64,000 nt of DNA. Source: Cephalotus follicularis. Its lineage: Eukaryota > Streptophyta > Magnoliopsida > Oxalidales > Cephalotaceae. This document shows, piece after piece, positions 30,475-59,663 of the stretch (positions within the stretch are counted from its first letter, which is position 1; every line of letters begins with the position of its first letter). Location: the NCBI GenBank assembly GCA_001972305.1, contig BDDD01000993.1, forward strand, positions 186,001 through 250,000. Reading direction: 5' to 3'. The notes beneath the pieces are model-generated. The model was not told where the DNA came from and searched no databases. It worked only from the letters and a program-made list of their open reading frames with translations. The position numbers were made by a program, and so were the translations under genes.

Positions 30475-32696
30475 TGTTAGTATAGTGACCCAACAATCCA
30501 TTAGATGGGTTGTCATATTATGTCTTATCTTGTATGAAACAATCTTATTCCTTGTATATATAATGCGTGCTAATTTGTTATGGCTATATCACTTGTGTTT
30601 ATCACTTAATTGAAGTAGTTTATTATTTACATGCTTACACTTGTGATGCCCTGACATAAGGTTGGATGCCTAGCATGGAGGCTGTGAGATTGGTTACCTT
30701 ATTCCTTATGTCGAATTAGTTCCAAGTCATAGGTTCACTTTGTGGACATCAGTGAACCGGATAGACTTGGGCGTATGTTGCCTGCTCATGGAATTGGAGA
30801 ATGGATTCTCTCACTACCATCTGTGTTGGACACTAAGGCAAATACAGGGTGCGCGCTGGAAGCGTGTACACTGAACTGGACCCGCGTAGGAGATACTATT
30901 TGGATAGTCGCTATTCTCGTGTCAGTAGTGACTCCTACTTGTTGCGGTTGTATATAAGTGTTGATCACTTAGCGAGTTCACAAAATCGTCTGATCCTTAG
31001 ACCTGAGCGACTACTCTATATTGTATGGAGACGGTTATGCTTTGATCTCCACCTTACCCAGTCCTTGCGCAGGGCTGACAATCGGGTGGTCTTTGGGTAT
31101 GATCGAATCTATACGAATATAAGTGAGTGCACAATATGGGATTGTCACACCTGAGCGAAGGTGATCGACTCTATTATGATCTGATTATACTTTGGACTTA
31201 TGAAACCCTTGGCCAAGGTTGAGGTAGACTGGAAATTAGATTTCTGGAGAGTTTACCAAAGGTCATAGAAATGATCAGATATTTTAGCCATTGAGGTATT
31301 GTCTAGGGTTGACACACATCCTTATCTTAGATCTCAATCAGGGCCAAGCATGACAATGAATTATAGTACACGTGAACCGACAACTTAGAAAATCTAGGGT
31401 TAAAGAGGTATGTAATAAATTATGATCAAATTAATTAGATTAATTTTTCCATATGGATAATATTAGATATTATTCCGATAGCATTTAAATTGGTTTAGGA
31501 CCATTTAGATGGCTAAACCGAACCCTATGGGCTTTTCGGTAATTTATGAATACCTCCTTTTTTTTAACCAAAATTTTAAAGGGTCCCTGTCTAATAATGA
31601 TTAGTTTTTTAATATGTTGGACATATTAAGACTTGGTGTCAAATATCGGTTATGTTAATTTTACATTTTGTGGAAACACATTTGTTTGATCTTACTTAAT
31701 TAATATTAGAAGGAATTAAATAAGTTGGGACTTATACTCAAATTGATTTATATATACCAGTCAAAGCGTCGACGCCTTCTGGGAAAGCGTCGGTGCATAC
31801 CTTTGGACAAAGCGTCGACGCCTTCTGGGAAGCGTCGACGCTTAAGGCTTGCATAGGCGTTGATGACTTTTAGAAATACGTCGACATTTAGTGCCATGTA
31901 ATGTATAAGCGTCAACGCTACTATTGAAAGCGTCGACACTTAGCGCGGGTTGTGCAGCCTGTGCACAAACTCACTTCGTGGGCACGTTTTCTCTCTCATC
32001 TTCAACAATTTTCTCTTATCATTGCACGTTATGGAAACGTGGGGATCATGGCTACAGACTCCCTGGAAGTGAGGACCATGATTCCGTGTTTGTGGGAGAG
32101 TGGGCTGGTGAGAAGCATTATTTGCAGAAAATGTTTCTGGTTTTTAGATAGTGAGGCTTTTGCTGGGCAAAAACGTGACAAGACCTTTCTCTGCACTTAG
32201 AGTTTTCCTTCACTAATAAACACCAAGCAAAGTTAACTTATATAGGGTAGATTATTTTTTATTACATTAATCAAACTCAAATTTCCTTATATAAGTTTTG
32301 AGAGAAAGTGGGAGTTAAAGTAAAATCTATTTTTGCTTCTTGCTGGAATTGTGTTGTTGTTGCTGGGAGTAGTAGCAGTACGAATTGGAAGGCAATATCA
32401 GCGTCTTCTCAAGCTTGAAGCGGTAAAGAAAGGAGGAGCCATCACCGTTGGTATATCTCTTTGCCTCCCTTTGTTATTACATTGCTTGTATGTCACCATT
32501 GGATGCAATAGTGATATCTTTTCAATTAGTGTGTTGATGTGGTGATCCATGTGGCTTGTGGTTATGCCATAATGGACTGGTTTTTAGCCTTTGTTGGGTG
32601 TTCTTCCGCTGCATATTTGTTGAATAAAATTTTGTTCTACACCCTACATGCTTTAGTCCATTTATGGCATAGGAAATGGTTAATCCATTTCCATCA
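30475..32696 (+). mobile_element. Solo LTR, family D, inserted into LTR A2
   Basis: The 2222-bp unit starts TGTTAGTATAG and ends CCATTTCCATCA. It is flanked by the exact 5-bp duplication GTGCC (30470-30474 and 32697-32701); removing it rejoins the GCATG-rich array of A2. It contains a GTCGAC array at 31767-31938. It has no coding domain. The plus orientation is chosen from TG...CA only and is uncertain, and so is the family. Confidence 0.75.
31767..31938. repeat. GTCGAC array in LTR D, 8 units
   Basis: GTCGAC or one- to two-base variants occur near 31768, 31788, 31814, 31834, 31859, 31880, 31911 and 31932, most in the context AGCGTCGACGC. Spacing is 20-31 bp. Confidence 0.85.
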
Positions 32697-33680: not shown

Positions 33681-33785
33681 ACTGGATCACCGACCGAGCT
33701 GAGCCAATGGATCACCAACCGAGCTGAGCCCTACGGGGATCACCTACAGAGCTAAGCCACTGGATCACCGACCTAGTTGAGCCAC
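33681..33785. repeat. Minisatellite in LTR A2, 4 units
   Basis: Units of GGATCACCGACCGAGCTGAG type, 23-30 bp apart, in the same relative place as the arrays of A1 and A3. Confidence 0.85.
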
Positions 33786-43727: not shown

Positions 43728-45066
43728 TGTCAAGCCCGGACCCAGCCCGGCTGGAATCCGTTGTGTCCGCTACGAGGTCAAGCCTTCCAACAGAGACTCA
43801 CCTCGTAGGTTCAGCAGAACAGAGTTTCAGAAAAGCATTTTAAAACAGAAAGTTTCTTCAAAACAGAAAAGTTTCTTGAAAAACTTAAAAATAATTCTAA
43901 CTCTTAAAATTTTACGAAAATCGGGCATGTAGTATTCGTTTATAGGACAATGCCCCCTGTAAAGAAAAACACAGTTTTATAATATCACACTCCCGAAGGA
44001 GGAAACAGTTTGTAATGGGCTCAGCCCTCAACAGATCACAATTTAAAAGTAGAAAACAAGTAATGAGTTGGGCTCTGCCTCAACCATATAAACAAAACTT
44101 AAAACCCGAATAAGGCTCAGCCCTTTTTAAACAAAACCAAAACATTTATACAAACATATAAGTAATGCAGAATTTAAAATATTTATACAGTGATGCTATG
44201 CATATGTTGACTCTGGTAGCATGCCCTTTTTGGTCTCACCTCAGCAGAGTGACTGACTCCAGCTGACAAAACTCAGCAGACTAACTTGTCAGAACTAAAA
44301 ACAGAAAACAGAAGAGAGGATTAGTCCACAGGACTAGTGAGATGGAACAAAAAGACTCCGCAGAGTTTTGCTCGCATATAAAAATATCTTTACAGAAAAG
44401 ATATAACAGCAGTATAAAACTGAAACAGAGTTTTAAGAAACAAAAATCCAAATACAGCATCTGATTTATAAAACAGATATAAAACGACTTAAACAGAATA
44501 TAAATCTAAAATCGATTTATAAAACCAAAGTTTCCCCGAAAACAGCAGAAAACCAGATCATTTCTTTCAAACAGATTCAAATCCTCAGATTTTTCATACA
44601 TATAATAGTAACAGAGTTTAAACAGAAATAAATAAATATATAGAGATGCCATGGGTCTACTAGGTAAGGTTGACGCCTGGGCCCCGTNCGGGAGAGAGGA
44701 GAGAGAAACCGGGGAGAGAGATAGAAAGGCAAAAGTGAGCCAAAAAAATGGCATTTCCCATATGTATTCAACTCTAAACGGACTGGGTTCGTCCAAAATT
44801 AAACCGATACGGACAGAAATTGGATATTTAGGACATAACACTTGGCCTATTTTCTGAATTCAGCAGTCTTTTTAGAAAAACATCATTTAATTTACGGAAA
44901 GAAAAATTTATTTCTTATGCAGAAAACCATCAGAATAAAATTATAAAAATTTAAATAATGCCATGATGCATATCATGAATGCCAGAAAACAGATTAACAG
45001 ATCGACAGACAGACAGAAGCCACGTAGGCTCACAGACACAGACCGTACAAGGACACGGATGTCACA
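43728..45066 (-). mobile_element. Solo LTR, family C, copy C1
   Basis: A 1339-bp unit with ends TGTCAAGCCC and GGATGTCACA, flanked by the exact duplication ATGTG (43723-43727 and 45067-45071). It is collinear with copy C2 on both sides of position 44688, where the window's only ambiguous base (N) lies; C2 has about 1.45 kb more there. Orientation is inferred as minus from C2. No internal domain is present. Confidence 0.85.
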
Positions 45067-45946
45067 ATGTGATTATATTCTCTTCAAAATAAAAACCTAA
45101 ATCAAACACAACCTTAAGATCAGACTAATTCATTATTTGCCCATTATATTAAAACTAGGCATTGACCCGCGCTTCACAGCAGAGAGTAATATATCTGATT
45201 AATACAGTGGACTGCATGGTTTTGTCAATAATAATGTATAATTTTACTGTCTATTCCACTGCCTCAGCAAGCATACCACCACACATCCCCATAAGCTACT
45301 CCAATGCATCTGAACCATGACATCCACACAAAATCCAAAGCAAATAAATAAATAAATTATGATCATCATTGAAAAAGACTATATATGAGTTAGGAGAAAT
45401 TAAAAGAATAGTTAGCAAGTGATAATAAAACTACATAATAAACAAATAACGAAAATAAAGATAAATTAATGTGATACATAAATTAAAAGGAAAGTATAAA
45501 ATAACATGATAATTAAATGAAATCGAAATTGTAGAGAGAAACTAGAAAATTAATATAAATAAAAAAGAAAATAAATGAAATGAAATAAATTAAAGATGAT
45601 TTGAATTAATTATCAACACAATAACAAAGAAAAATAATAATAACAAATGCTATGTGATAAATAAATGAAGGAAATATATAGAGAGAAATGTAAGACAGAA
45701 ATAAATGAAAAAGATAAAATTGCGCGATACGAGTGTTAAATAAGTAAAAGTGAAAATAAATATAATGCATGAATTAAATAAAAGTAGAAACTAAAACAAA
45801 AATATAAAGTTGAATAAATGAATATCAAAAGATAAAGTAACACAATAAGACATTATTTGAAAAGGATAAATGAAAGGATAATTAAGACATATATTCTCAC
45901 ACGTTAACAGTAACTAGTACAAATAGATGGAATCATAGAAACTTGT
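45067..45946. other. A-rich low-complexity DNA
   Basis: AAATAAAT-type sequence without a gene. The same kind of sequence resumes at 54316, so LTR B1 inserted within one A-rich block. A Helitron-like string (ACTAGGCATTGACCCGCGC) lies near 45154. Confidence 0.5.
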
Positions 45947-46120
45947 TGTAATGACCGCAATTTCAAATTTAATGTATATTGTATAAATAATGAATAAATA
46001 CACATTGATTTGAAATTTATACTTATTTGTCCATGGATTAAGTTAGTGATTGTTATTGAGAATTTAATTGACTGACATTGTGACAAATAAGGGCGAAATT
46101 GGAAAACTGAAATAAGGAAC

Positions 46121-46240
46121 AACCGACTATTGAGATAAACAGTCGACTAGCCACTTCTGAAGGAAACGGTCAACTATTAGAGAAAACAGTTGACTGGACG
46201 GCTCAATGAAGTAGTCGACTACTAGAGGAAACAGTCGACT
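46121..46240. repeat. GTCGAC array 1 in LTR B1, 6 units
   Basis: Cores near 46122, 46142, 46169, 46189, 46214 and 46234. Three are intact, the others are ACCGAC, GTCAAC and GTTGAC. Typical context is AAACAGTCGACT with spacing 20-27 bp. Confidence 0.85.
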
Positions 46241-46530
46241 GGGAGAGTTCAGACAGAATCTGTTACACTTCAATTAGAACAAAGCAATGGCATGAAATGG
46301 CCTCTTAACTAGGACAGGTTTCCTAGGACGTGTCAAGGATGCCAAAACGTGTCTTCAGCTGTTGCATGAAGGAAAGGTTAGTGTCCTGAGCACATGCAAC
46401 CTGCAAAAATCGAAAGAAGAAAATAGAAAACAGTGATAGAGAGAAAGGAGAAAAGGTTGGAAACTTGAGTTAGAAAACTTACAAATCTCTCAGATAAAAT
46501 TCCTTTTATAACAGATGTTCGAAGGAGTGG

Positions 46531-47355
46531 TGACACGTTCGGACCCAGCCCAGCTGGAATCCGTCGCACCCACTACGAGGCCAAACCTCCCATCAGAGAC
46601 TCACATCGTAGGTTCAGCAGATCAGAGTTTCAGAAATACATTTTTAAGCAGAGAATTTTTTTAAAACATAAAAAAAACAGAAAAGTTTCTTGAAAATAAT
46701 TCTAAGTCTTAAATTTTCATGAAAATCGGGCATGTAGTATCCGTTTGTCGGACTATACCCCCTGTAATGAAAAACACAGTTTATAAAATTCACACCCCAG
46801 AAGGAGGAAATCAGTTGTTTATAAAGTGGGCTCAGCCCGCAGTAGACCACATGTTAAAATATAAAACAAGTATGGGTTGGGCTCTGCCTCAACCATATTA
46901 TTAAAACATAATTCAAAAATTGGGCTCAGCCCTTCTAAACAAAATCATAAAAACATTTATCTAAAATATAAGAAATGTAAAAATTTAAATGCTAATGTCG
47001 TGGATGATATGCAGATGTTGACTCTGGTAGGCATGCCCTTGTGGTCTCACCTCAGCAGATAGACTGACTCCAGCTGACAGAGTTCAGCAGACTAACCTGT
47101 CAGAATTAAAAACAAAAACAGAGCAGGGGTTAGTCCACAGAACTAGTGAGATGGAACAAAAGACTTAGCAGGGTTTTGCTCGCATAAAAATATCTTTGCA
47201 GAAAAGATATAACAAAAGTATAAAGCAACTGAAACAGAATTTCAGAAACAGAATCAAAATTCAGAATCTGATTTATAAAACAGATTAAAAACAGATATTT
47301 CTAGAAATCAGCAGAAAACCAGATCATTTCTTTCAAACAGATTTAAATCATCAAA

Positions 47356-47391
<36 letters not shown>

Positions 47392-49324
47392 TATATATAT
47401 ATATATCATAATTAACAGAGTTTAAACAGAATAAATATATAAAGATGCAATGGGTCTACTAGGTAAGGTTGACGTCTGGATCCCGTAGGGCCGAACGTCC
47501 AGCATAAATAGTTGCACTGACACCGTCGTGTCAAAGAATCAACAGAAGGTCACACACATGCAGACAGTGCCTCTCACGGGCATCAGATAAGTAACCAATA
47601 CAATACCGAGATCACAATGCATCTAAACATATTTAACAGATTTCAGAATACATAATCTCCAATTCCTCAAAACAGACTTTAAATAGATTTAAACAGATAC
47701 AGAAATCATCAGAGCCATCAAAACATATTTAAAACAGATTTAAACAGATACAAAATTCATTTTTTTTATCAAATACAGATATAACCGAAAATAATGTAAT
47801 ACTATGACTATCATCATGTGAGCATTTGAAAATATTAAAACAAAGTTTCAGACATTAAAATTTGAACATCTTTCAGAAACTGAGTAAATCCAAATTCATT
47901 CAGATACGAAAGTAAATAAGTGAAAACGTTCAAACATTCAAACCATTTAAAAGAACTTCAGAAATAAAATGGTTCAAGAAAGGCGTTCTACTGACAGAAC
48001 AGACGAGCAAATCCCACGACTGGTCACCTCCATGGCTGATCTCAATAGCAGGATCCTCTACCAACAGACAGATAGATAACAGACTATCAGAATTCAAACA
48101 TGTACAATGTCGTGCAATGCGTTTTGCAATGAAATGCGCGCAGATGTCAGAAAACTAAAACCGATCAATACGCTCAAAAGTAGCCGAAATACGATTATTA
48201 AAAACATCGTTTAAACTTCAATTAAATATACTTTCAAAATCATTAAAGCAAGTCCAACTGTTCGTCCAGGTTATCAAATTTCGAATCAGATAAACAATTG
48301 AAGTTCATAATATCGCAGAAACAGATACAGAAATACAGAATTCAACAGAAAGCAGAATTAACGGAACAGAGTTCAGAATTTACTGAAATCAGACAGAACG
48401 AAGCACGGAACCGGAATCGCGGAGCAGAACTGGAACAGATCACCTCCATGAGGAAAACGGAGTCGGAAAGCTGGACGCGTATGAAACGCGTTGTCTGAGG
48501 CTACCGGCGAGTGGGCTCACGTGCTGCCGCTGACTGGCACCTGTCAGCCACGCGCAGCGGTTGGGCCCCGGAGGATGAGGAACACTGATCTGAGGCGCGT
48601 TGGTCACGGTGCCACCGCATCTGGCCGGAATGAGCACGTTGACCGTGGCGGCCTTCGCTGCTGATCTACGCTGTCGGCGTCGTCATGGGTCAGGGCTAGT
48701 CGGGTTCGACTCACCTCGAAGCGAGGATGTTAGATCTAGGTTCGCCTTGCAGTGAAGATCACCGGAGACGGAGAAAGGCACAAAATAGAGGCAGAGAGAT
48801 AAGATCTCGTCGGGTGAGCACGGGGCTGTTTCCGGCTCCGAGGTGGGGTGCGGCTTGGTCGGGAGGCCGAGGTGGTCCCGTTGATGGTTTCACCAGCGTC
48901 ATTTCGGCAGTGACGTTGGCGGCAGAGGCAGAAGACAGAGAGAGAACGGGAGAGAGGAGATAGAAACCGGGGAGAGAGAAAAATCCCAAAAATGAGACAA
49001 AAAAGGCATCTCCCTTATATATATTCAACCAAAACGGACAGGTTTTTGTCCAGAATTTAACCGATACGAACAGAAATTGGATATTTAGGACATACAACTT
49101 GACTTATTTTTCGAATTTAGCAGTTATTTCAGTAAGACATCATTTAATTTACAGTCAAGAAAATTAATTTGTTATGCAGAAAACCATAAGAATAAAATCA
49201 TAAAAAAATATTAATGCGGTGATGCATATGCCATGAAAGCTAAAAAAACAGACTAACAGCTAGGCAGACAGACAAAAAGCCACGTGGGCTCACAGATACA
49301 GACTACTGGGACAAGGATGTCACA
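46531..49324 (-). mobile_element. Solo LTR, family C, copy C2, nested in B1
   Basis: A 2794-bp unit with ends TGACACGTTC and GGATGTCACA, flanked by the exact duplication AGTGG (46526-46530 and 49325-49329). A minus-strand TATA-like string (ATATATATAAGGG, about 49013-49025) lies about 300 bp inside the right end. The region at 48480-48960 is GC-rich. It has no coding domain. Confidence 0.88.
47361..47405. repeat. Compound microsatellite (CA)14 then (TA)n in LTR C2
   Basis: Fourteen CA units, then GA and TA dinucleotides. C1 lacks the expansion at the same place (about 44600). Confidence 0.95.
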
Positions 49325-49773
49325 AGTGGAGTGTTAGAAACATCTTGGAAAAGAGGAATCGTATTGTACTAAGCTTGCATGCTGGAGATAGAGTTTCAAA
49401 GCTAAACTGGAAACTTGAAATTGAAGTGGTAAGCTTCTGTTTTGAATTCGATTGTTATCATAGTTAAACAATCTTATAGATGTACTGATTTTCGTTATAT
49501 ATATCTACTATTAACATGCAAACATAGATTGGTTTCTGGATTATTGAAGATTGAATGAGTTGAAGGAGTATTGAGTAATAAAGAGAAGAATCAATCCAAT
49601 TGATTCTGGGATAGTGAATTTAGGTAGGTTTTATGACATGATTTTGAGGATATAGTATGTATATCATGTCCATATAGTTTATGTATGATTGTATGTTGAT
49701 ATTGGAGTGAATTGGATTAAGAATTGTACTACTCTGTTTTTCTGTTAAACTGTGAATCGCTATCCTGAGAAAA

Positions 49774-49907
49774 ACAGTCGACTGTTTAAGATAAACAGTC
49801 GACTACTCAAAAGGAACAGTCGACTGTTAATGAGAAACAGTCGACTATGCAATAGAACAACCGACTGATCAAGAGAGACAGTCGACTGTTAAGAAAAATT
49901 GTCAGCT
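49774..49907. repeat. GTCGAC array 2 in LTR B1, 21-bp period
   Basis: Cores near 49777, 49798, 49819, 49840, 49860, 49881 and a decayed one at 49901, with spacings 21, 21, 21, 20, 21 and 20. The usual unit is TTAAGAGAAACAGTCGACTG. Confidence 0.9.
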
Positions 49908-50976
49908 TTTAAGAGAAACTGAAATTGGACGATATCTTACTGTTTATACTTGGCAATCATGAATTCATACCGGATTACCGAATTCATGCTTCTAAGGATC
50001 AATACATCTTATGAATTGAACGGATTGTGCATTATTGTTGTTGATGCTTGAGTTGATATTGCTTGTACTATTGATTCTTGAACTGCTAATGAATGTACTG
50101 TTATGAAATGCATATTGTCACTGTTATAGATATATTTTATCTATCAAGTAATTTCAAAAATTACAACTATTTCAAAGGGATTTCAAGGATTTCCAGCAAA
50201 TGTGCTATATGCACAATTTACTGTTTTAAACTACTGTTTTCTCTACGTAGAACCACCGTACTATTACTGTACTGTCACTGTTCCTCAAAATGGAACCCTA
50301 CTGAATTGTTTTACTGTTTTCTCAAAAGAGAATTACTTTCATATTACATTATATATGTAATTACTGTACTGTATTGTATTGACTGTGATTGATAGTTTCT
50401 GATGGTCTTGTGATAGGAGTGTATCACGGACTACAGAGGTGAGCCTAGGTGCTAAGAGTTGGCTAGAGCTTATACACCAAACTTATCTACAATACAGACC
50501 GTGACTGTTAATTTCCCACCAAGTGCCATCAATACTGTTTACCTTTTCTATCATCATCGGAGTGTATGGTGGTAGTTAGTTGGTGCATCGTTGGGGCTAG
50601 GAGGTAGCGACAGATGACACCCACTACTGATCTTCGGACAACTGGACTGATTGTTTGTACCATTTGTGGTATTTTTGATAACTGGTTGTTTGTAGCCACT
50701 TGGCATCATTGATTTATATATATATACGGTTTTTTAAATATATAAACTGTCATGCATGATTACATTTATATATTCATCTTCATGCATAATTCCTGCTTAG
50801 CCGAGTGAGGATAAAGGCTAATATCTATAATTGCATATTAACGTAGGAAAGTGGAGACTTGCTGCTGAAGTTTCGTGATGAAGGTTTTATTTTAAGGTTG
50901 TATTTGTAAAATGTTTAAGTCGTACCCCTTCTGTTATATTTACATTCCCAATATGTAATATATAACTTTGTAGTGT

Positions 50977-53900
50977 TGTAACGCCCCAAACACCAAGGGT
51001 CAACCCCCAAGGTTTGTCACGCTACTAGCAGTATCATTCATTATCCAATATTCAGCAGAAATTAAAAACTTTTAACAATATAATAATGCATGTGGAATAA
51101 ATCTAATTAAATATCAATTGCGTGGATAAACCCTGTGTTATGCAATATTGTTCATAAAAGCTCTGCCACACACCGGCAGGTCAAAAAATACAATATAATT
51201 ATACTCTTGGGTCCTCGAACTGCAATAAAAGGGAGGAGACTCACCCGGGGTTTCAATCCTCAGCTCGCTGCAAGCTCTACCTGTACCTGACCCATTACAT
51301 TAAAATGCAATGGGTCAGGGACCACTGGTCGTGTAGGAATTACAACCCACTCATGTATGGAGATGCAGATGTAGCAGGCAGTATGCAATGCAATGAGATG
51401 CAACAATGAACAGTACAATACATTTATTGAATTCAGTCATTAACAATCAATCGTTAACAATCAATCATTAATTGTTCTATGATTAACAGTCACTATAAAA
51501 TTCTTCCTCGGCCTCCCCGCTTGGGGAGAAGCGGTAACGCACTCCGGACGTGAAGGGCAAAGAAGCTGGGAGGAATAAACTTTATAATTCAGGCAGACCG
51601 GTTCCTCGGGTTCCTCGGCTTAAGGAAGAGCAATAACGCGCTCTAGACGTTATAGGCGGAGGGGAGGAACATAACTATTATACAGTATTAGTAACAGTCA
51701 TTCAGAACACTATACAATAATAACATTAACAGTAACAGTCAGTGTGGCTCATCTCAGTCGGTTATCAGTCGGCTCATCTCAGTTGGTGATCCGACGGCTC
51801 ATCTCGGTCGGTGATCCATTGGGCTATCTCGGTGATCCACCAAGCTCATCTCGAAGATAGCCTTACCGGTTCATCTCGGTCTGTGATCCCGTAGGCTCAT
51901 CTCGGTTGGTGATCCAATACAGTACAATATATTAACACTACATTAATAGTACATTAACACTACCGTACATTATCTTAACATTTCAATAACACTACAGTAC
52001 GTTGACAATTCACTGTGTGGTCTGCCTTCATTATTTTACACTATGCCATAGTACACCACACTTTATTATACTATATCATTTTCACTATACTATTTATTAA
52101 TACTCCTACATTTACTGCACCAGTCTCTTGTCCTTTCACTGACAGCAACCATCATTCCATCCCATATATAGATAGATATATAGAGGTGTCACCAGGGAGA
52201 AGTGCCACTCACGTATCACACCTGTATGGGCGCGTGCAAGAGCACATTGTTTGGCATAGGGACGACAGGCCATCGCGCCCTGCTCGGGATGCCTGGGAAG
52301 AGACGGCACATGCATGGCAGAGGAGGGGTTGAGTGCATGGCGCATGGATACCATGCTTGGAAAGCCTTGGCAGTCGATGTTGCATGCTGATAACGTATGC
52401 AGGGAGAGCCTGGGCGCATGGCAGAGGACAAGCTCGGCGTTGGACGGGAGCTCAGAACGCATGCACAGTGCACGAATGCATACTTTGGAATGCACACTTG
52501 GTGAGCTCGGGTAGTGCAGTGCATGGCGTGCATGGCACCTCTGCCATGGCTGCCGTGCTCAAATACTAGAGGTGGAGCTCGGCAGGTATCGTGCTCGGGC
52601 ATGGAGCTTGGCACTTGTGCTCCTCGGCGCCTTGGCAGCTCAGGCATGTCACCTCGAGCATGACCACGGCACCTCAGGTGCTTACATGGAGCTCGGGCGC
52701 TTTGACAGTGGAGCTTGACAGGGGTGCTCGGGCGTATAGGATGGCGATGGCAGTGGTTGGAAGCCCACGTGTCATGCTAAGGTCGCATGCATGGGGAGCT
52801 CAGCGCATGAGTGCCAAACAATGCATACCTGGGAAGCAAGGCCTCTCAGCGTGTGGCTCCTCGACGCTTGCAGTGGACAGGACGCATGTGTGTCCGCTGG
52901 CGATGGCTCCTCGGCATGTATAGTGCATGGTGGGTTAAGGCGCTACACCTTTCATGCTCGTGGTGTTCACGTAGCAGTGCTTAGCACCATTTCCGTGGAG
53001 ATCTCTTCACCTCGGCGCATGGAAAAGAAGTGCACTGGCGTTTGGCACCTCAGCAGCTGGCAGCACAGGCATACCATGGGAGCTCAACATGATGGCAGGT
53101 CGGGCACGGGCTCCTCGGCACCACGACAGCTCAGGTGTGGGAGTTTGGTGAGCTCAGCGCTTTCCATTCCATGCTCAGCTGCATGGCGCTACATGCTTGG
53201 GGACGCATGCATGCAAAATGTAGAGCTCGGCATTTCAGTGGGGAGTTCAGTACGTTCACGCGATGGCTACTCGACTCATGGCATGTGGGTGTTTGGTACC
53301 ATGCCTTGCTCGGGCGTTATATGGAAGGATGCACAGTTAGTGCACGTGATGCCAAGGTGCATCCTATCGCATTCTCGTGCTTGGACACATACGCTCGGGA
53401 GGCAGGGCATGGCAACACATGGAACACCACGGCTTGGTTGGGTGCATAAAGTGCAGTAGGGATAAGACTATATCATGGTGAGCATGTAGGTATCTACTAA
53501 TGCTAGAATCGTAACACCCATTCTACTCATTCACCCTTCTATCATTACCAAATTCAATACAAACAATAACAGGACCATAAGAAATAAAGCACTGAGTAGG
53601 AAGTAGATCCTATCTCAATCTGACGAGTTTGTTGCACAAATTCCTTTGCTCAGCACACTTCCTTCAATTGCTCCTTGTCTCCTCTGATTCCTTTTCCTTG
53701 CTCATTTACTAGTAACTTCCTGGTATCTCTTTCTCTCCCAATTTGCCAACAGCCCACACTCCACTCTCTCCCTTCCTTTTTATAGCCAAATCTAAGGAAG
53801 GCTCTAGAATATTTGAGACAATTCCAACAATTTCCTCTTCATTTTGGGCTGCTCATTTTCAACCCATCACTCTCTTCCTCCTCTTAATAAATTCGGCCCA

Positions 53901-54155
53901 GGTCTCTTCTTTTTTCTCTAATGGCCCAAGCATTATTTAAAGCCCATATTCCTTTTCTTCTTCATTAAGTCCAATTCCAACCAAAAGTAATATTAACATA
54001 TTTTTTGTCCAAAATGTCATTTATTCATTGTAAGGTCCAAAGGGGCATTTCTTCAGTATCACATTTTGAGCCCAATTCCTTCTTTAACAATACGGCTCAA
54101 CATTCGGTTCAGTCCAAAAGCCAGTCTTTTATATAATAAAATTCCAGGCATTACA
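50977..54155 (-). mobile_element. Solo LTR, family A, copy A3, nested in B1
   Basis: A 3179-bp unit with ends TGTAACGCC and GGCATTACA, themselves inverted repeats, flanked by the exact duplication AGTGT (50972-50976 and 54156-54160). A minus-strand TATA box (CTATAAAAAGG, about 53777-53786) lies about 370 bp inside the right end. The leader matches A2, including the GGATCTACTTCCTACTCAG-type block. A GCATG/CTCGG-rich region spans about 52190-53460 and a minisatellite 51738-51915. The long frames inside the GCATG-rich part are not genes. Confidence 0.9.
51738..51915. repeat. Minisatellite in LTR A3, about 7 units
   Basis: Units of GGCTCATCTCGGTCGGTGAT type with CC(A/G) joints, 20-33 bp apart, on the opposite strand to those of A2. 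Confidence 0.85.
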
Positions 54156-54315
54156 AGTGTAATGAAGCTTAAGCATGTAGTATGGGCTATATGTGTATGC
54201 TACTTTGAATAAATCAGTATAATGTTTATGCTTCCGCAATTTAAAAAAGTTTTTAATTATTAGGAAATACTAGACTAAATTTTAACCATGTGTTAATTAA
54301 AAGAGGGGTGTGACA

Positions 54316-54896
54316 CTTGTTATATACACACCCCAAAATTTTATGTATAGCAAGAAAACACGTAAATAAATAAATTATAATTATTATTAACCATGTTATT
54401 TTTTTAATAAATTTTTTGACAAATAAATTGGTAAATAAGTCAAAGTTTAAATAAAAATAACATTATGATTAAACAAAAGTGAAAATATAAAGCTAAATAA
54501 ATGAAAGCGAGAATATAAATTAACATTAAAATAAAGGAAAACATAAAGTTAAACTTTTTTTTATAAATGTAATCATGCATGATGTTAAATGCAATCCCTT
54601 TATCACCATGATGTTAGTAATGAAACATAATATCATTAAGCAAATATTTTTTTTTTCAAATTCAAACATATTGAGTTATGATATTACATAAAAGGTTAAA
54701 CCAAAGTAAAATCATACTTTTCTTTTTATTTTCCTTTTCTTTTATTTGCCTTTTCTCCCCCTTTTTCTCTCTCGAATATTTGGACAACAAAAAAAAATCT
54801 CATACCACTTTTCTTCTCTTTCCTACAAACAACATTACACAAAAATAAAACCTCACTAAAAAAGACAAATTCTCACACACCAACACAGCGCAAATA
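54316..54896. other. A-rich low-complexity DNA, right flank of LTR B1
   Basis: Continuation of the A-rich block at 45067-45946. No gene was seen. Confidence 0.5.
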
Positions 54897-55977
54897 GGGG
54901 TGTGCAAAATTATTCGAAACACGAAAACTCGAATCGAACAGAGTTGATTTTTTTCGGCTAGGGTAATCAGGGTAATTCGGTTATTCGGGTCGATTGAGAT
55001 GGGTCTCTCTTAAAGTTCAGTTTAGGTACGATTGGAGAATTTTACAATTTCGGATACTCGGATATCCGAATATTTAGCGTAAAAAATAACTATTGTGGAG
55101 CAAATTAAAAAGCCAAAATTTAAGTCCAAGTCACAAGTCCTAACCTAATTGTCTGGTCCAACCCAATGCCCATGAAAACAAATACCTAACCCAATGTGGC
55201 AATGTCGGTCCATTCCAATCCCTTTGTCCTAATATGAAATATCCCCTTAATTCCTAATCTCTAATTCCCAATATCCCAACCCTAAATGACTCAACCAAAT
55301 CGAATCCCATCATCCCAAATATCCCAAATTCCCAACCTCACTCTACTGATCGATCTCACTTCTCACAGTGTGTCATTCCACCGAACTTATATCTCTCACC
55401 CCACCGAGTCACCAACGACGACATCTTAGTCTCCTTCTCACACCTCCGATGTTTCTCTTCTTAGTCTCACTCTCACACTACCGACTCCATTCTATTCTCT
55501 TTCTCACTTTGACATTCAGTGGCTCACGCTCTGACGATCACGTTCAGTGGCTCACCATCGATACCTCACACCGACACCGAACCACAACCAGGCCAGCAGT
55601 TACTAGCCCACCACAAAGCCTCACTCAGTTAGGATTGTTCAATAGGGTATTACCCGCCCCGTATTTATTTTTGGTTTCGGGTATCGATTTTTTGAGTTGT
55701 ATTTTTTACACCTGAAACTGAACTGAACTTGATGTTTGGGTTTCAGTTACTCGATCTGAACATCAAGTTCGGTTTTTGGGTTTTCCAGTTTTACCCGAAA
55801 TGATCAAGCTTTTTCGCTTTTCTCCCTACTTTTCATCCTACTTTTCATTTAGTAGCCTTTACCATTTCCTCTTGGGGTTCATCTTTTTCCATTTCTTATG
55901 CTTGTTCCATTAGCTCTCTCCCCAGTCCATTGGATGCCGCTACTACTGAATTGACAATTGGAGGTTGAGAAAGAGCC

Positions 55978-56016
<39 letters not shown>

Positions 56017-56722
56017 GAGTTTTGTTTTAGTTGTGAAGCCAAAGAGACTAGGATAGCATATTACAATTGCTTTTCTCCCTTTTTCGATTGAGCATATTAC
56101 TATTGCTTTATAATTTGTGCAATTGGAGTTTCATTACATCATATGTACGATTGCTTTTCTCACTTTTTTCAGTTGAGCAGATTACGATTACTTTACATAT
56201 TAGTTATCGAGCATGTCTGTTCGCTAAGAATGAGATGAGGTGTTGAGGCTTAGCATAGCCAGGTTGAGCCGTTGACAGGTTGAGGGTAGTGTTGTAGTGA
56301 GGTTGAGGGTTAACGTGGCTGGTCAAGGAGATTGTTTCAATGATTCGATTTAGGGTTATCGGGTTACTGGTACTGGGTTAGATAGGTAGCAATAGTAACA
56401 TGGCAGGTTTCTTGTAATGGAGTTCTGTGTTGGGCCATTTCTTGGTTAGGTTAAGGCGTTAGTTAGGTTTATGGTAATGGGCCTAATGGGTTTCAATGCA
56501 TATAATGGGTTAGTAGTAGGTTTAGTTAGTTAGGTAATGGTTAGCATAATTTCGGCTATTCGGGTACCCGAATATTTGAAAATATATATTCTTCCTCCCA
56601 TACCCAGACTGAATTTAAGAAATACCCAATAATAACAACCCGAATAACTGAATTACCCGAATCCAAAAAAAGTTTAGTGCGGTTCAGTTCTGTTTTTTGG
56701 GTTTCGAATAATTTTGCACGCC
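54897..56722. mobile_element. Non-autonomous hAT-like DNA transposon
   Basis: Inverted ends GGGGTGTGCAAAATTATTCG (left) and the reverse complement of GGCGTGCAAAATTATTCG (right, ending 56722) bound about 1.83 kb. The GGGGTGTGCAAA end is typical of hAT elements. The subterminal parts repeat ATTCGGG/CCGAAT strings. No transposase frame was found, and no clear 8-bp duplication was identified. A GA microsatellite lies at 55981-56012. Confidence 0.65.
55981..56012. repeat. (GA)16 microsatellite
   Basis: Uninterrupted GA dinucleotides inside the hAT-like element. Confidence 0.95.
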
Positions 56723-57189
56723 TTTACACTCAGTTACTCCCATTCTCACCAGTCATCTCAGTCAGCACAAAAGAACCTTAAACAAACGGAGAAACAGGGT
56801 AGAAAACAAAAAAAAACTGAAAACAATATAATTTCGTGTTTTATTCAAAACACCCGAAATCTGAACCATACTTCGGTTCGGGTAGCTCAAAAGATTTGGA
56901 GAAGTCTGGTGGTGGTGATGCGCTTAAACGCGCGACAGTTTGTCATTGCGTCCGTTGCACTCACTCTAGTGCCAGGTACAGTTCCTTCATCTTTTTATTT
57001 ATTTTTTGTTTTTATATATATTAATATTAATAATTTATTCCTCTTTTTTGTTGTGGATTGTTGTTTTTTTTTTTACGAATTTGGAGATTTGGGTGGTGGA
57101 TGGTTTGATAATGTTGAGGTGACAGTCGTGGTTCGGGGTATTTCTGTTTGCTATGGGGTGTACAAGTGGTGAATGACAGTAGGTATTTG
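56723..57189 (+). other. Possible 5' exon of an unidentified gene, cut by LTR B2
   Basis: After a leader-like stretch, an ATG at about 56920 opens a short frame (MRLNARQFVIASVALTLVP). A plausible splice donor follows (GTGCCAG/GTACAG, about 56973) with a T-rich, intron-like region to 57060. The solo LTR at 57190 follows and no further exons were recognised. It could equally be chance; I cannot name a gene. Confidence 0.2.
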
Positions 57190-58350
57190 TGTCACACCCC
57201 GATTTTTATTAACACATGGTTAATCCAATTTAATCTAGTACTTATCAATTTATTTAAAACCCTTAACTTTACGAAAGCATTAATAATACTGGATTATTCA
57301 AAATATTATACACATACAGTCCATACCACATGCTTAAACTTATTACAATTCAAAGTTATATATTACATATTGAAAATGCAAATATAACACGGGTATGACT
57401 TATTTCAAATTACAACCTTAGATAAAACTTCAAAGCAAAGCTTCAACAGCACTTGTCCCAATCCCTTGCTTGTCAATCTGAAATTTGTAGGTATTAGCCT
57501 TTTGTCTACTCAGCTAAGTAGGAAATATGCATGAAGATGAATATATAATTGTAATCATGCATGACAGTTTATATTTCAAAAATAAGGTATATATATAAAT
57601 CAATATATATAAGAAACCATGCCCAAGTGGCTACAAACAATCAGATATCAAGAATACCACAAAGGGTACAATCAGTACAGTTGCCTGAAGACTAGTGGGT
57701 GTCACACTTCCCTACCTCCTAGCCTCAACGATGCACCACCTAACTATCACCTACACTCCGATGATGATAGAAAAGGTAAACAGTATTGCTGACATTTAGC
57801 GAGCAATTAACAGTCAAGATCTGCGATGCAGATAAGTTTGGTATATAAGCTCTAGCCAACTCCTGGCATAGAGGCCCACCTCCGTAGTCAGTGATACACT
57901 CCAATCACTAGACTAACAGACTATCAATCGCAAACAATTCAGTTATTACATATATAATGTAATATAAACAGTAATTCTCATCGGTAGAGAAAACAGTATA
58001 CAGTAATAGTAACAGTAGATTCTAGTTTGAGAAAACAATTGAAAATATTCAGTTTGTGTATAAAGCACTCAGTTCTTGAAATTTTTGAAACATTAGTAAT
58101 TATAGAAATTGCTTTGGTGGATATGATATATCCATAACAATGAATACTTTACAGTAATATGCAATTTGCACGACAGTACAATCACTATCAATTTTAAGGA
58201 TCAAACAATAGTATGCTTAAGTTGTTCAACTCATATAATCAGACTACACATAGCAAAGGTTGATTATTAGCATCATTCGATATGGAAGTTAGTGTATTCT
58301 CAAGAGAATCGAACAAAATAGTACCAAATATATAGACAGTTGCAGTAAAG

Positions 58351-58575
58351 CGTCGTCGGTTCTCTCTTAGGCTTCGACGGTTAACCTCTTAAGCGTTGAT
58401 TGTTAGCCTCTTAAGCGTCGACATTTTTCTCTTAAGCGTCGACAATTTTTACCTTTAAGCGTCGACGGTTTCTATAAAGCGTAGATGGTTTTCTTCGATT
58501 AGGTGTCGACTGTTTCAGTCAAAGAGTCGACAATTTTCACTTTAAGCGTCGACGGTTCCTTATTAAGCGTCGACG
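58351..58575. repeat. GTCGAC array 2 in LTR B2, 11 units
   Basis: Cores near 58352, 58372, 58394, 58417, 58438, 58461, 58481, 58505, 58526, 58548 and 58569, spaced 20-24 bp. The usual context is TTAAGCGTCGACGGTT; seven cores are intact. Confidence 0.9.
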
Positions 58576-59363
58576 GTTTCCTTTGTTCATGCAATTCACA
58601 GAAGAATAGAAAAACAGAGCATGAATTTACACAATCCAATTCAGTCTAACATCAACATGTAGTTACATATAAACTGTCCTAACGCGATTTACATGTTATA
58701 TCTTCATAAATATGTCATAAATCCTACCTCAGAAGCTATCCCAGAACCAATTTGGATTGATTCTTCTCTTTACACTTCAATTCTCCTTCAATTCAACCCA
58801 ATCTTCAATAATTCCAGAAATCTCCTTCAATTCATCCCAATCTTCAATAATTCCAGAAATCAATCTATGTTGCATGTTAATATCAGATACATGCACAAAT
58901 CAGTATAGACATAAACGGAGTAACTATAATACTAACAACCGAATTCAAACTAGAAGCTTACCAATTCTATTTAAGCTTCAATTTCAACTTTGAACTCCAT
59001 TTTCCTTCAACATGCAAATCCCAGATTACTCCAGATTAATTTCTCTCTTTCCAGAGATTTCTAACTCTCAACTCAACTCACAACAGTCTGATATAAAAGA
59101 TTTCGTTTCCAACAGACTGTTTAATCCCCTAACTCAAATTCTCAGTCTTTTCACGTCTCTCTCTAATTCCACTGAACTCATTGATTTTCTCTCAGTTTTG
59201 CAGGTTACAACGCCAAGACACCAATCTCTCATGCAGATAGTAGCTGGCACTCTGATTTTTCCAGTGTTTGACACGTTCCTAGACCACCTGTCCAGGTTAA
59301 AAGCCAATCACGCCATTGCTCTGCTTCAATCGACACGTATAAGACACTTGTCTGGGCTTAAAG

Positions 59364-59440
59364 CGTCAACGGTGTTGCCCTTGGCGTCGACGGTTATGCG
59401 GCCGCTCAAAGCGCCGATGGTTTAGCCTTTGGCGTCGACG
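59364..59440. repeat. GTCGAC array 1 in LTR B2, 4 units
   Basis: Cores near 59365 (GTCAAC), 59386 (GTCGAC), 59413 (GCCGAT) and 59434 (GTCGAC), in the context GGCGTCGACGGTT. It lies where array 1 of B1 lies. Confidence 0.8.
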
Positions 59441-59663
59441 GTTAAGCGCCAGATTTTTTTCCTTTAAGTTTCTTTCAATTAACTCCCCATTTAATTCAAT
59501 TTCATCATTCATTCATCTTAATGTCATTTAATTAAGCCTTCAACTTATCCCATCAACAACTATTAGCTTAATCAATGGATAATTAAACATTAATTTCAAT
59601 TCAATGTATCATTTATTCGTCATTTATACAATATACATTAAAATTGAAATTACGGTTATTACA

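What the first reader, a model, noticed from the sequence alone, without database searches (positions are those of the whole stretch)
46121..59440. Paired GTCGAC palindrome arrays evolve in concert inside each family B LTR
Copies B1 and B2 each carry two arrays about 1 kb or more apart once nested inserts are discounted, at homologous positions. In B1 both arrays use the flanked core AGTCGACT (46121-46240, 49774-49907). In B2 both mainly use CGTCGACG (58351-58575, 59364-59440). The central hexamer and the roughly 21-bp period are kept while flanking bases switch together, at both sites in one copy. Independent drift would not give this. Possible causes are gene conversion or slippage-linked spread between arrays, or selection for a shared binding site or hairpin seed. 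A period of two helical turns would place palindromes on one face of DNA. I know of no named element defined by this pattern.
Basis: partly seen in the sequence, partly recalled or inferred. Interest (0 to 1): 0.75.

Follow-up and report, generated by a model that had tools for sequence, protein, structure and literature searches.

The report
Two-dialect palindrome arrays in retrotransposon LTRs
Jumping genes of two different kinds in this plant-like genome carry clusters of the same short mirror-image DNA word, in one of two spellings that hardly ever mix, which looks like a set of docking sites for a DNA-binding protein.

Summary
B1 and B2 are solo LTRs with 5-bp target duplications; each has two GTCGAC arrays, B1 AGTCGACT ("AT"), B2 mainly CGTCGACG ("CG"). 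Genome-wide (1.58 Gb) there are 224,538 close GTCGAC pairs against 3,925 for the reversed control. AT-AT pairs number 109,633, CG-CG 18,436, mixed 164, GGTCGACC pairs 2 (control 3). In 50 family-B copies with a call at both arrays, 49 agree. The agreement is mostly lineage-level: dialect changes 3-4 times on the between-array tree, supported independent switches number 2, and spacers of the two arrays are no more alike within a copy than between copies, so per-copy gene conversion is not the rule (one clear transfer, L078). LTRs look mosaic. A Ty1/copia family carries CG arrays in LTRs without DNA similarity to the Ty3/gypsy family B. Best reading: clustered binding sites for dimeric protein(s) with two specificities, kept by selection around the LTR promoter. 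The kind is known (palindromic repeated motifs of Sirevirus LTRs; VANC target arrays); I found no report of the two-dialect, two-superfamily form.

The parts
45947..54315 (+). B1: solo LTR, TGTAATGACC...GGTGTGACA, 5-bp target duplication CTTGT on both sides; split by two nested solo LTRs
   Evidence: ends and duplications read; alignment to B2
46121..46240 (+). B1 array 1, AT dialect (AGTCGACT); cores 46142, 46214, 46234 plus CpG-decayed GTCAAC and GTTGAC
46505..46510 (+). TATA-like TTTATA between the arrays of B1 (promoter role inferred; TTTTATA or C[CT]TTTATA found in the scanned stretch of 29 of 69 copies)
46531..49324 (.). nested solo LTR of family A, target duplication AGTGG, separating array 1 from array 2 of B1
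   Evidence: related A copy at 43737-45067
49774..49907 (+). B1 array 2, AT dialect; cores 49777, 49798, 49819, 49840, 49881; folds strongly as RNA (z -7.3)
50977..54155 (.). nested solo LTR of family C, target duplication AGTGT, inside B1
57190..59663 (-). B2: complete solo LTR of the same family, target duplication ATTTG
58351..58575 (-). B2 array 2, mainly CG dialect (CGTCGACG) with T.G, T.T and A.A members; a 140-nt part of it shows no excess RNA folding (z -0.3)
59364..59440 (-). B2 array 1, CG dialect; cores 59386, 59434 plus a decayed GTTGAC
59092..59097 (-). TATA-like TTTATA between the arrays of B2
31763..31940 (+). third array of the window, CG dialect, in an LTR that appears to begin at 30475 (TGTTAG) and belongs to a Ty1/copia-type family without detectable DNA similarity to B

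Best explanation
The arrays are clusters of binding sites for sequence-specific, probably dimeric DNA-binding protein(s). The site is CAGTCGACTG (AT dialect) or about GCGTCGACGC (CG dialect). The clusters sit at two places in the LTR, in B1 and B2 on either side of a TATA-like sequence, so they would act as upstream and downstream control elements of the element's promoter: activation, or VANC-like anti-silencing. New sites arise by tandem duplication and occasional transfer. Sites that keep the recognised ten bases are retained in the replicating lineages while spacers drift. The two dialects would reflect two protein specificities, and LTR recombination carries array blocks between lineages. 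Shown: site and spacer pattern, two dialects, rarity of mixing, presence in two superfamilies, one transfer. Likely but not firmly supported: mosaic LTRs. Inferred: the protein, the dimer, the promoter role, and activation or anti-silencing.
For: Genome-wide pairs 224,538 v 3,925 control; AT-AT 109,633, CG-CG 18,436, mixed 88+76, GGTCGACC pairs 2 v 3 control. In 54 distinct AT spacers from one contig C and G follow the A/T flanks in 46 of 54 each, giving CAGTCGACTG, and positions 3-9 after and 3-8 before the core have at most 0.33 bit. Arrays 1 and 2 of a copy share the site but little of the spacer, and AT arrays 1 and 2 differ in spacing. CG arrays occur in family B (Ty3/gypsy: RVT_1, gag, SH3_Tf2-1) and in a Ty1/copia LTR (L088: RVT_2, E 6e-46, with the array in the adjoining 3' LTR). 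Symmetric consensus without covariation beyond the first flank fits two half-sites read separately by a protein.
Against: No binding protein is identified; DUF1985 (a VANC domain) gave 0 matches, but its control did not ring either. There are no expression, methylation or binding data. The TATA-like box is found in only 29 of 69 copies. Within the AT clade of family B decamers are only moderately better kept than spacers (0.877 v 0.819). Spacers of arrays 1 and 2 are slightly more alike than shuffled letters (0.319 v 0.274, largest shuffle 0.306), so some shared origin remains visible. Most arrays also fold well as RNA, which a hairpin explanation predicts. Three of 11 neighbouring array pairs on one contig differ in dialect. 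The T/A-flanked form was not counted genome-wide.
Confidence: 0.6

Rival explanations
1. Plain descent. LTR lineages carry in both arrays the flank type their ancestor had; nothing keeps the arrays alike and they have no function.
For: Dialect maps to few changes on the between-array tree (3; for array 1 taken alone, 4) and supported independent switches number 2, too few to show coupling. Array block and dialect are mostly inherited together.
Against: Does not explain why the same decamer recurs with unrelated spacers, why CG arrays occur in Ty1/copia as well as Ty3/gypsy, why mixed pairs are about 190 times rarer than independent flanks would give (copies are not independent), or why a CpG-bearing site appears to outlast its spacers.
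Confidence: 0.2
2. Secondary structure. The palindromes pair with one another as RNA or single-stranded DNA; sites must match to pair, so one array keeps one dialect. The hairpins would serve the element or attract small RNAs, as proposed for maize Sireviruses.
For: 11 of 14 arrays tested fold better than shuffles with z of -3.2 or lower. Sirevirus palindrome clusters are reported as small-RNA hot spots (passages of PMC10760457 and PMC5311732).
Against: Any array of like palindromes folds well, so the folding is not independent evidence. B2's two arrays and L092 do not fold significantly. Beyond the first flank the two sides of a site show no covariation; pairing between sites was not tested this way. 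Pairing alone does not fix which sequence is used, yet GGTCGACC pairs are absent.
Confidence: 0.13
3. Gene conversion or slippage-linked spread between the two arrays of each copy.
For: L078 array 1 holds about 90 bp that are 90% identical to array 2 of B2, inside array-1 flanks.
Against: Spacer identity between arrays is the same within a copy (0.319) as between copies (0.324) in 26 AT copies, and 0.422 v 0.401 in 4 CG copies. AT arrays 1 and 2 keep different spacing patterns. L078's array 1 resembles the array 2 of B2 more than its own array 2.
Confidence: 0.07

Closest known systems
Palindromic repeated motifs (RM) of Sirevirus LTRs (Bousios 2010, PMC2829016; section 9 and passages read; the 2016 maize follow-up PMC4728375 is not held, and is known only from citing passages)
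   Same: Many copies of a palindrome, mostly CpG-bearing, clustered in LTRs of plant retrotransposons upstream of a TATA box; elements differ in the exact palindrome; the Vitis motif CGGTCGACCG even has the GTCGAC core.
   Different: That paper reports RM as specific to Sireviruses among Ty1/copia elements, with a CGG-CCG signature in all but one. Here there is no CGG-CCG signature, the arrays occur in Ty3/gypsy too, at two places per LTR, and in two flank dialects found in several families; the G/C-flanked form of the Vitis motif is essentially absent as pairs.
VANC target motif arrays of VANDAL elements (Hosaka 2017, PMC5735166; parts 1-3 of 6 read)
   Same: Short motifs in tandem repeats in non-coding parts of one element, at several places, in C-type and T-type versions that differ between subfamilies and diverge together; VANC6 motifs also occur in the unrelated AT9TSD1.
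   Different: VANDALs encode the reader protein themselves (DNA transposons, from recall MULEs); the published VANC21 motif is not a palindrome. Here the carriers are LTR elements and no reader is known.
Heat-response elements in Brassicaceae COPIA LTRs (PMC5059998, abstract and outline read)
   Same: Several LTR families in one host carry binding sites of the same factor, mostly gained species-specifically.
   Different: A known host factor; long two-dialect arrays are not described in what I read.

Membership tests
Sirevirus palindromic repeated motifs | carrier is a Sirevirus (Ty1/copia) | tested here: not met
   Family B internal regions give RVT_1, gag and SH3_Tf2-1, i.e. Ty3/gypsy; for the copia family at 31763 the lineage was not determined
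Sirevirus palindromic repeated motifs | CGG-CCG core signature | tested here: not met
   Decamers are CAGTCGACTG and about GCGTCGACGC
Sirevirus palindromic repeated motifs | palindrome repeated many times, clustered in the LTR | tested here: met
Sirevirus palindromic repeated motifs | cluster shortly upstream of a conserved TATA box | tested here: inconclusive
   TATA-like box between the arrays in B1 and B2, but found in only 29 of 69 copies
VANC-type anti-silencing system | motif arrays in non-coding element DNA, lineage-specific motif variants | tested here: met
VANC-type anti-silencing system | VANC protein (DUF1985 domain) encoded in the genome | tested here: inconclusive
   0 matches to PF09331, but none of the 14 control genomes matched either
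VANC-type anti-silencing system | motif-dependent loss of DNA methylation | not testable with these tools
LTR retrotransposon (B1, B2 as solo LTRs) | TG...CA ends and 5-bp target duplication | tested here: met
   CTTGT for B1, ATTTG for B2

The most novel reading that the evidence does not exclude
One plant-like genome holds a two-channel regulatory code for its retrotransposons: two protein specificities, reading CAGTCGACTG or GCGTCGACGC, each addressed by several LTR families and at least one of them by both superfamilies, which acquired paired site arrays on their own or by LTR recombination. It would be an anti-silencing or activation system shared among elements that are otherwise unrelated.
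Probability: 0.33. Interest if true: 0.82.

Novelty: new variant of a known kind. Interest (0 to 1): 0.62.

Why it matters
There is about one close GTCGAC pair per 7 kb of a 1.58 Gb genome, in two spellings that hardly mix, in LTRs of both Ty3/gypsy and Ty1/copia elements. This gives a direct handle on an open question: whether retrotransposons of one genome depend on a few common trans-acting readers, and how sites and readers coevolve. It can be tested with two 10-bp probes.

Tried and rejected
Uniform old subfamilies: disfavoured. AT-CG identity is 0.724 between the arrays and 0.866 downstream of array 2. Against an over-strong reading: CG-CG identity between the arrays is just as low (0.725; AT-AT 0.806), so that block is diverse in general and CG is not one subfamily; the downstream tree has only 5 well-supported branches of 41, which force at least 2 dialect changes of the 8 on the best tree; and many CG copies were found through their downstream similarity to B1.

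CpG decay as the source of the two dialects: rejected. Decay of CGTCGACG gives T.G or C.A flanks (21 and 39 of 371 array sites in the held loci, against 199 A.T and 74 C.G), not A.T; the double-decay form T.A is seen 7 times.

Strict helical phasing: holds for array 2 of AT copies (70 of 70 spacings are 20-21 or 39-42) but not for array 1 (26 of 64 at 20-21, 18 at 25-28, 15 at 45-50).

VANC protein search by DUF1985: no match, control silent, so not informative.

Literature: among the papers listed (lists cut at 8 to 15 rows out of 22 to 854 papers) I saw none on these two decamers in LTRs; one search found no paper with all its terms. The nearest is PMC2829016. The library lacks most subscription journals, so this does not show that it is unpublished.
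Full report
What is there. B1 (45947-54315, + strand) and B2 (57190-59663, - strand) are solo LTRs of one family. B1 begins TGTAATGACC, ends GGTGTGACA and is flanked by the 5-bp duplication CTTGT; B2 is flanked by ATTTG. B1 is split by two further solo LTRs with their own duplications: A at 46531-49324 (AGTGG) and C at 50977-54155 (AGTGT). GTCGAC occurs 25 times in the window against 3.8 expected. B1's two arrays are A...T flanked, B2's mainly C...G flanked. The gap between the arrays, with the insert discounted, is about 0.74 kb in B1 and 0.79 kb in B2.

Scale. GTCGAC pairs with a gap of 4-34 bases number 224,538 against 3,925 for the pattern read backwards; with a gap of 12-18 bases, 176,928 against 2,136. 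That is about one pair per 7 kb.

Two dialects. With a gap of 8-18 bases, AGTCGACT pairs number 109,633 (control 346), CGTCGACG pairs 18,436 (control 46), mixed pairs 88 on one strand and 76 on the other, and GGTCGACC pairs 2 (control 3). The T/A-flanked form was not counted genome-wide; it could also arise by CpG decay of the CG form. If flanks were drawn independently about 31,700 mixed pairs would be expected (my arithmetic), so mixing is about 190 times too rare. These counts are not independent events, because elements are multicopy and arrays grow by duplication. Of the 100 mixed pairs listed, 21 are one recurring string, i.e. probably one lineage.

Site against spacer. The 100 pairs listed from the start of one contig hold 86 distinct strings; in the 54 distinct AT pairs with 18-24 bp spacing (A and T fixed by choice) the next base is C or G in 46 of 54 on each side, giving CAGTCGACTG, and positions 3-9 after and 3-8 before the core have at most 0.33 bit. 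Spacing is 19-22 bp in 81 of the 100 and 27-28 bp in 10. Within the AT clade of family B the decamer is only somewhat better kept than the spacer (0.877 against 0.819 identity to B1 in array 2); the stronger contrast is between families.

Both arrays of a copy. From loci found mostly by similarity to B1 or B2 (30 of 40 scored places, 30 of 40, 14 of 40 fetched, and L002) plus B1 and B2 themselves I kept 69 copies after dropping five repeats of the same place or sequence. Fifty have a majority call at both arrays: 28 AT/AT, 21 CG/CG, 1 CG/AT (L016) (Fisher p 3e-13; B1's array 1 was read from the window). Nineteen were not counted: 18 lacked a typed site at one array and one (L057) was tied. Some of the 50 are the two LTRs of one element. 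On a tree of the array-free segment between the arrays the AT copies fall in one group with two CG copies inside (3 changes; the branch is weakly supported, 84/88). Independent contrasts number 2 on supported branches (4 on all branches of this tree, 9 on the downstream tree); where array 2 differs it goes the same way as array 1, never the other way, but so few cannot reach significance. So the agreement in family B is shown, but coupled change is not.

Not uniform. For 44 copies with both segments, AT-CG identity is 0.724 between the arrays and 0.866 downstream of array 2; AT-AT is 0.806 and 0.852, CG-CG 0.725 and 0.891. CG copies are thus as unlike each other between the arrays as they are unlike AT copies. 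On the downstream tree dialect needs 8 changes, of which well-supported branches force 2. Of B1's five best downstream matches (L010-L014) four are CG copies and one is untyped, whereas its five best between-array matches (L040-L044) are all AT. I read this as mosaic LTRs in which the array block and the downstream block have different histories; choosing loci by one block or the other exaggerates the contrast.

No general conversion between arrays. Spacer identity between arrays 1 and 2 is 0.319 within a copy and 0.324 between copies for 26 AT copies (letters shuffled: mean 0.274, largest 0.306), and 0.422 against 0.401 (shuffled 0.289) for 4 CG copies; array 2 against array 2 of other copies gives 0.572 and 0.515. 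One exception is clear: array 1 of L078 holds about 90 bp that are 90% identical to array 2 of B2, inside array-1 flanks. In AT copies array 2 keeps a strict 20-21 bp rhythm while array 1 mixes 20-21, 25-28 and 45-50 bp.

Two superfamilies. Internal regions of one AT element (L083) and one CG element (L084) of family B give reverse transcriptase RVT_1, gag and a Tf2-type SH3 domain, with integrase parts in L083, i.e. Ty3/gypsy; assignment to the Tekay/Del lineage would be from recall and was not tested. The window's third array (31763-31940) lies in another family (L086, L088, L090, L091), without detectable DNA similarity to B. In L088 a copia reverse transcriptase (RVT_2, E 6e-46) lies upstream of a 3' LTR that starts TGTTAG and carries CG-type sites, the two exact ones about 145 and 165 bp into the LTR; the window copy's LTR starts alike at 30475. 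Of the eight loci fetched around CG arrays, four show a second array 0.8-1.15 kb away, all CG/CG (L086, L090, L091, L092); three of these are one family, and L090 and L092 were chosen where one search already listed two CG arrays. On one contig, 8 of 11 neighbouring arrays 0.7-1.7 kb apart share dialect and 3 do not; membership in one element was not checked for these.

Structure. Eleven of 14 arrays fold as RNA with z of -3.2 or lower; B2's two arrays and L092 do not. The two sides of a site show no covariation beyond the first flank in 155 AT and 75 CG contexts. A symmetric consensus without covariation is what two separately read half-sites give.

Reading. Arrays of a fixed ten-base palindrome amid drifting spacers, in two spellings, in LTRs of two superfamilies, point to binding sites of a dimeric protein with two specificities, placed in B1 and B2 on either side of a TATA-like box. 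Whether it activates, de-silences or represses is open; sites that only served host repression should be lost by the element, which is why I favour activation or anti-silencing. The closest known kinds are the palindromic repeated motifs of Sirevirus LTRs (PMC2829016; the Vitis motif is CGGTCGACCG) and the VANC target arrays with C- and T-types (PMC5735166). It is not a member of the first as defined there (Ty3/gypsy carrier, no CGG-CCG signature), and the defining features of the second could not all be tested.

Noticed in passing
51746-51916 and 33681-33785: A separate tandem motif of about 25 bp (GGCTCATCTCGGTCGGTGATCC) inside the family C solo LTR and a related stretch, in opposite orientation at the two places; another family-specific array.
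   Followed up: no
L078:142-230: Array 1 of this family-B copy contains a run of array-2 monomers: a direct case of transfer between the two array positions.
   Followed up: partly
L016, L062, L020: Recombinant-looking family-B copies: CG array 1 with AT array 2 (L016), or CG array 2 on a backbone that groups with AT copies (L062, L020).
   Followed up: partly
44688: A single N in the window inside an A-family copy, where that copy also lacks about 1.5 kb of the other A copy; possibly an assembly join.
   Followed up: no
L002:2355-2789: Transposase_21 (tnp2) fragment, E 1.8e-52, next to a distant family-B LTR.
   Followed up: no
46142-46240 and other arrays: CpG decay of the AT site gives AGTTGACT, which contains TTGAC, the W-box core as I recall it; old arrays may turn into WRKY-like sites.
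   Followed up: no
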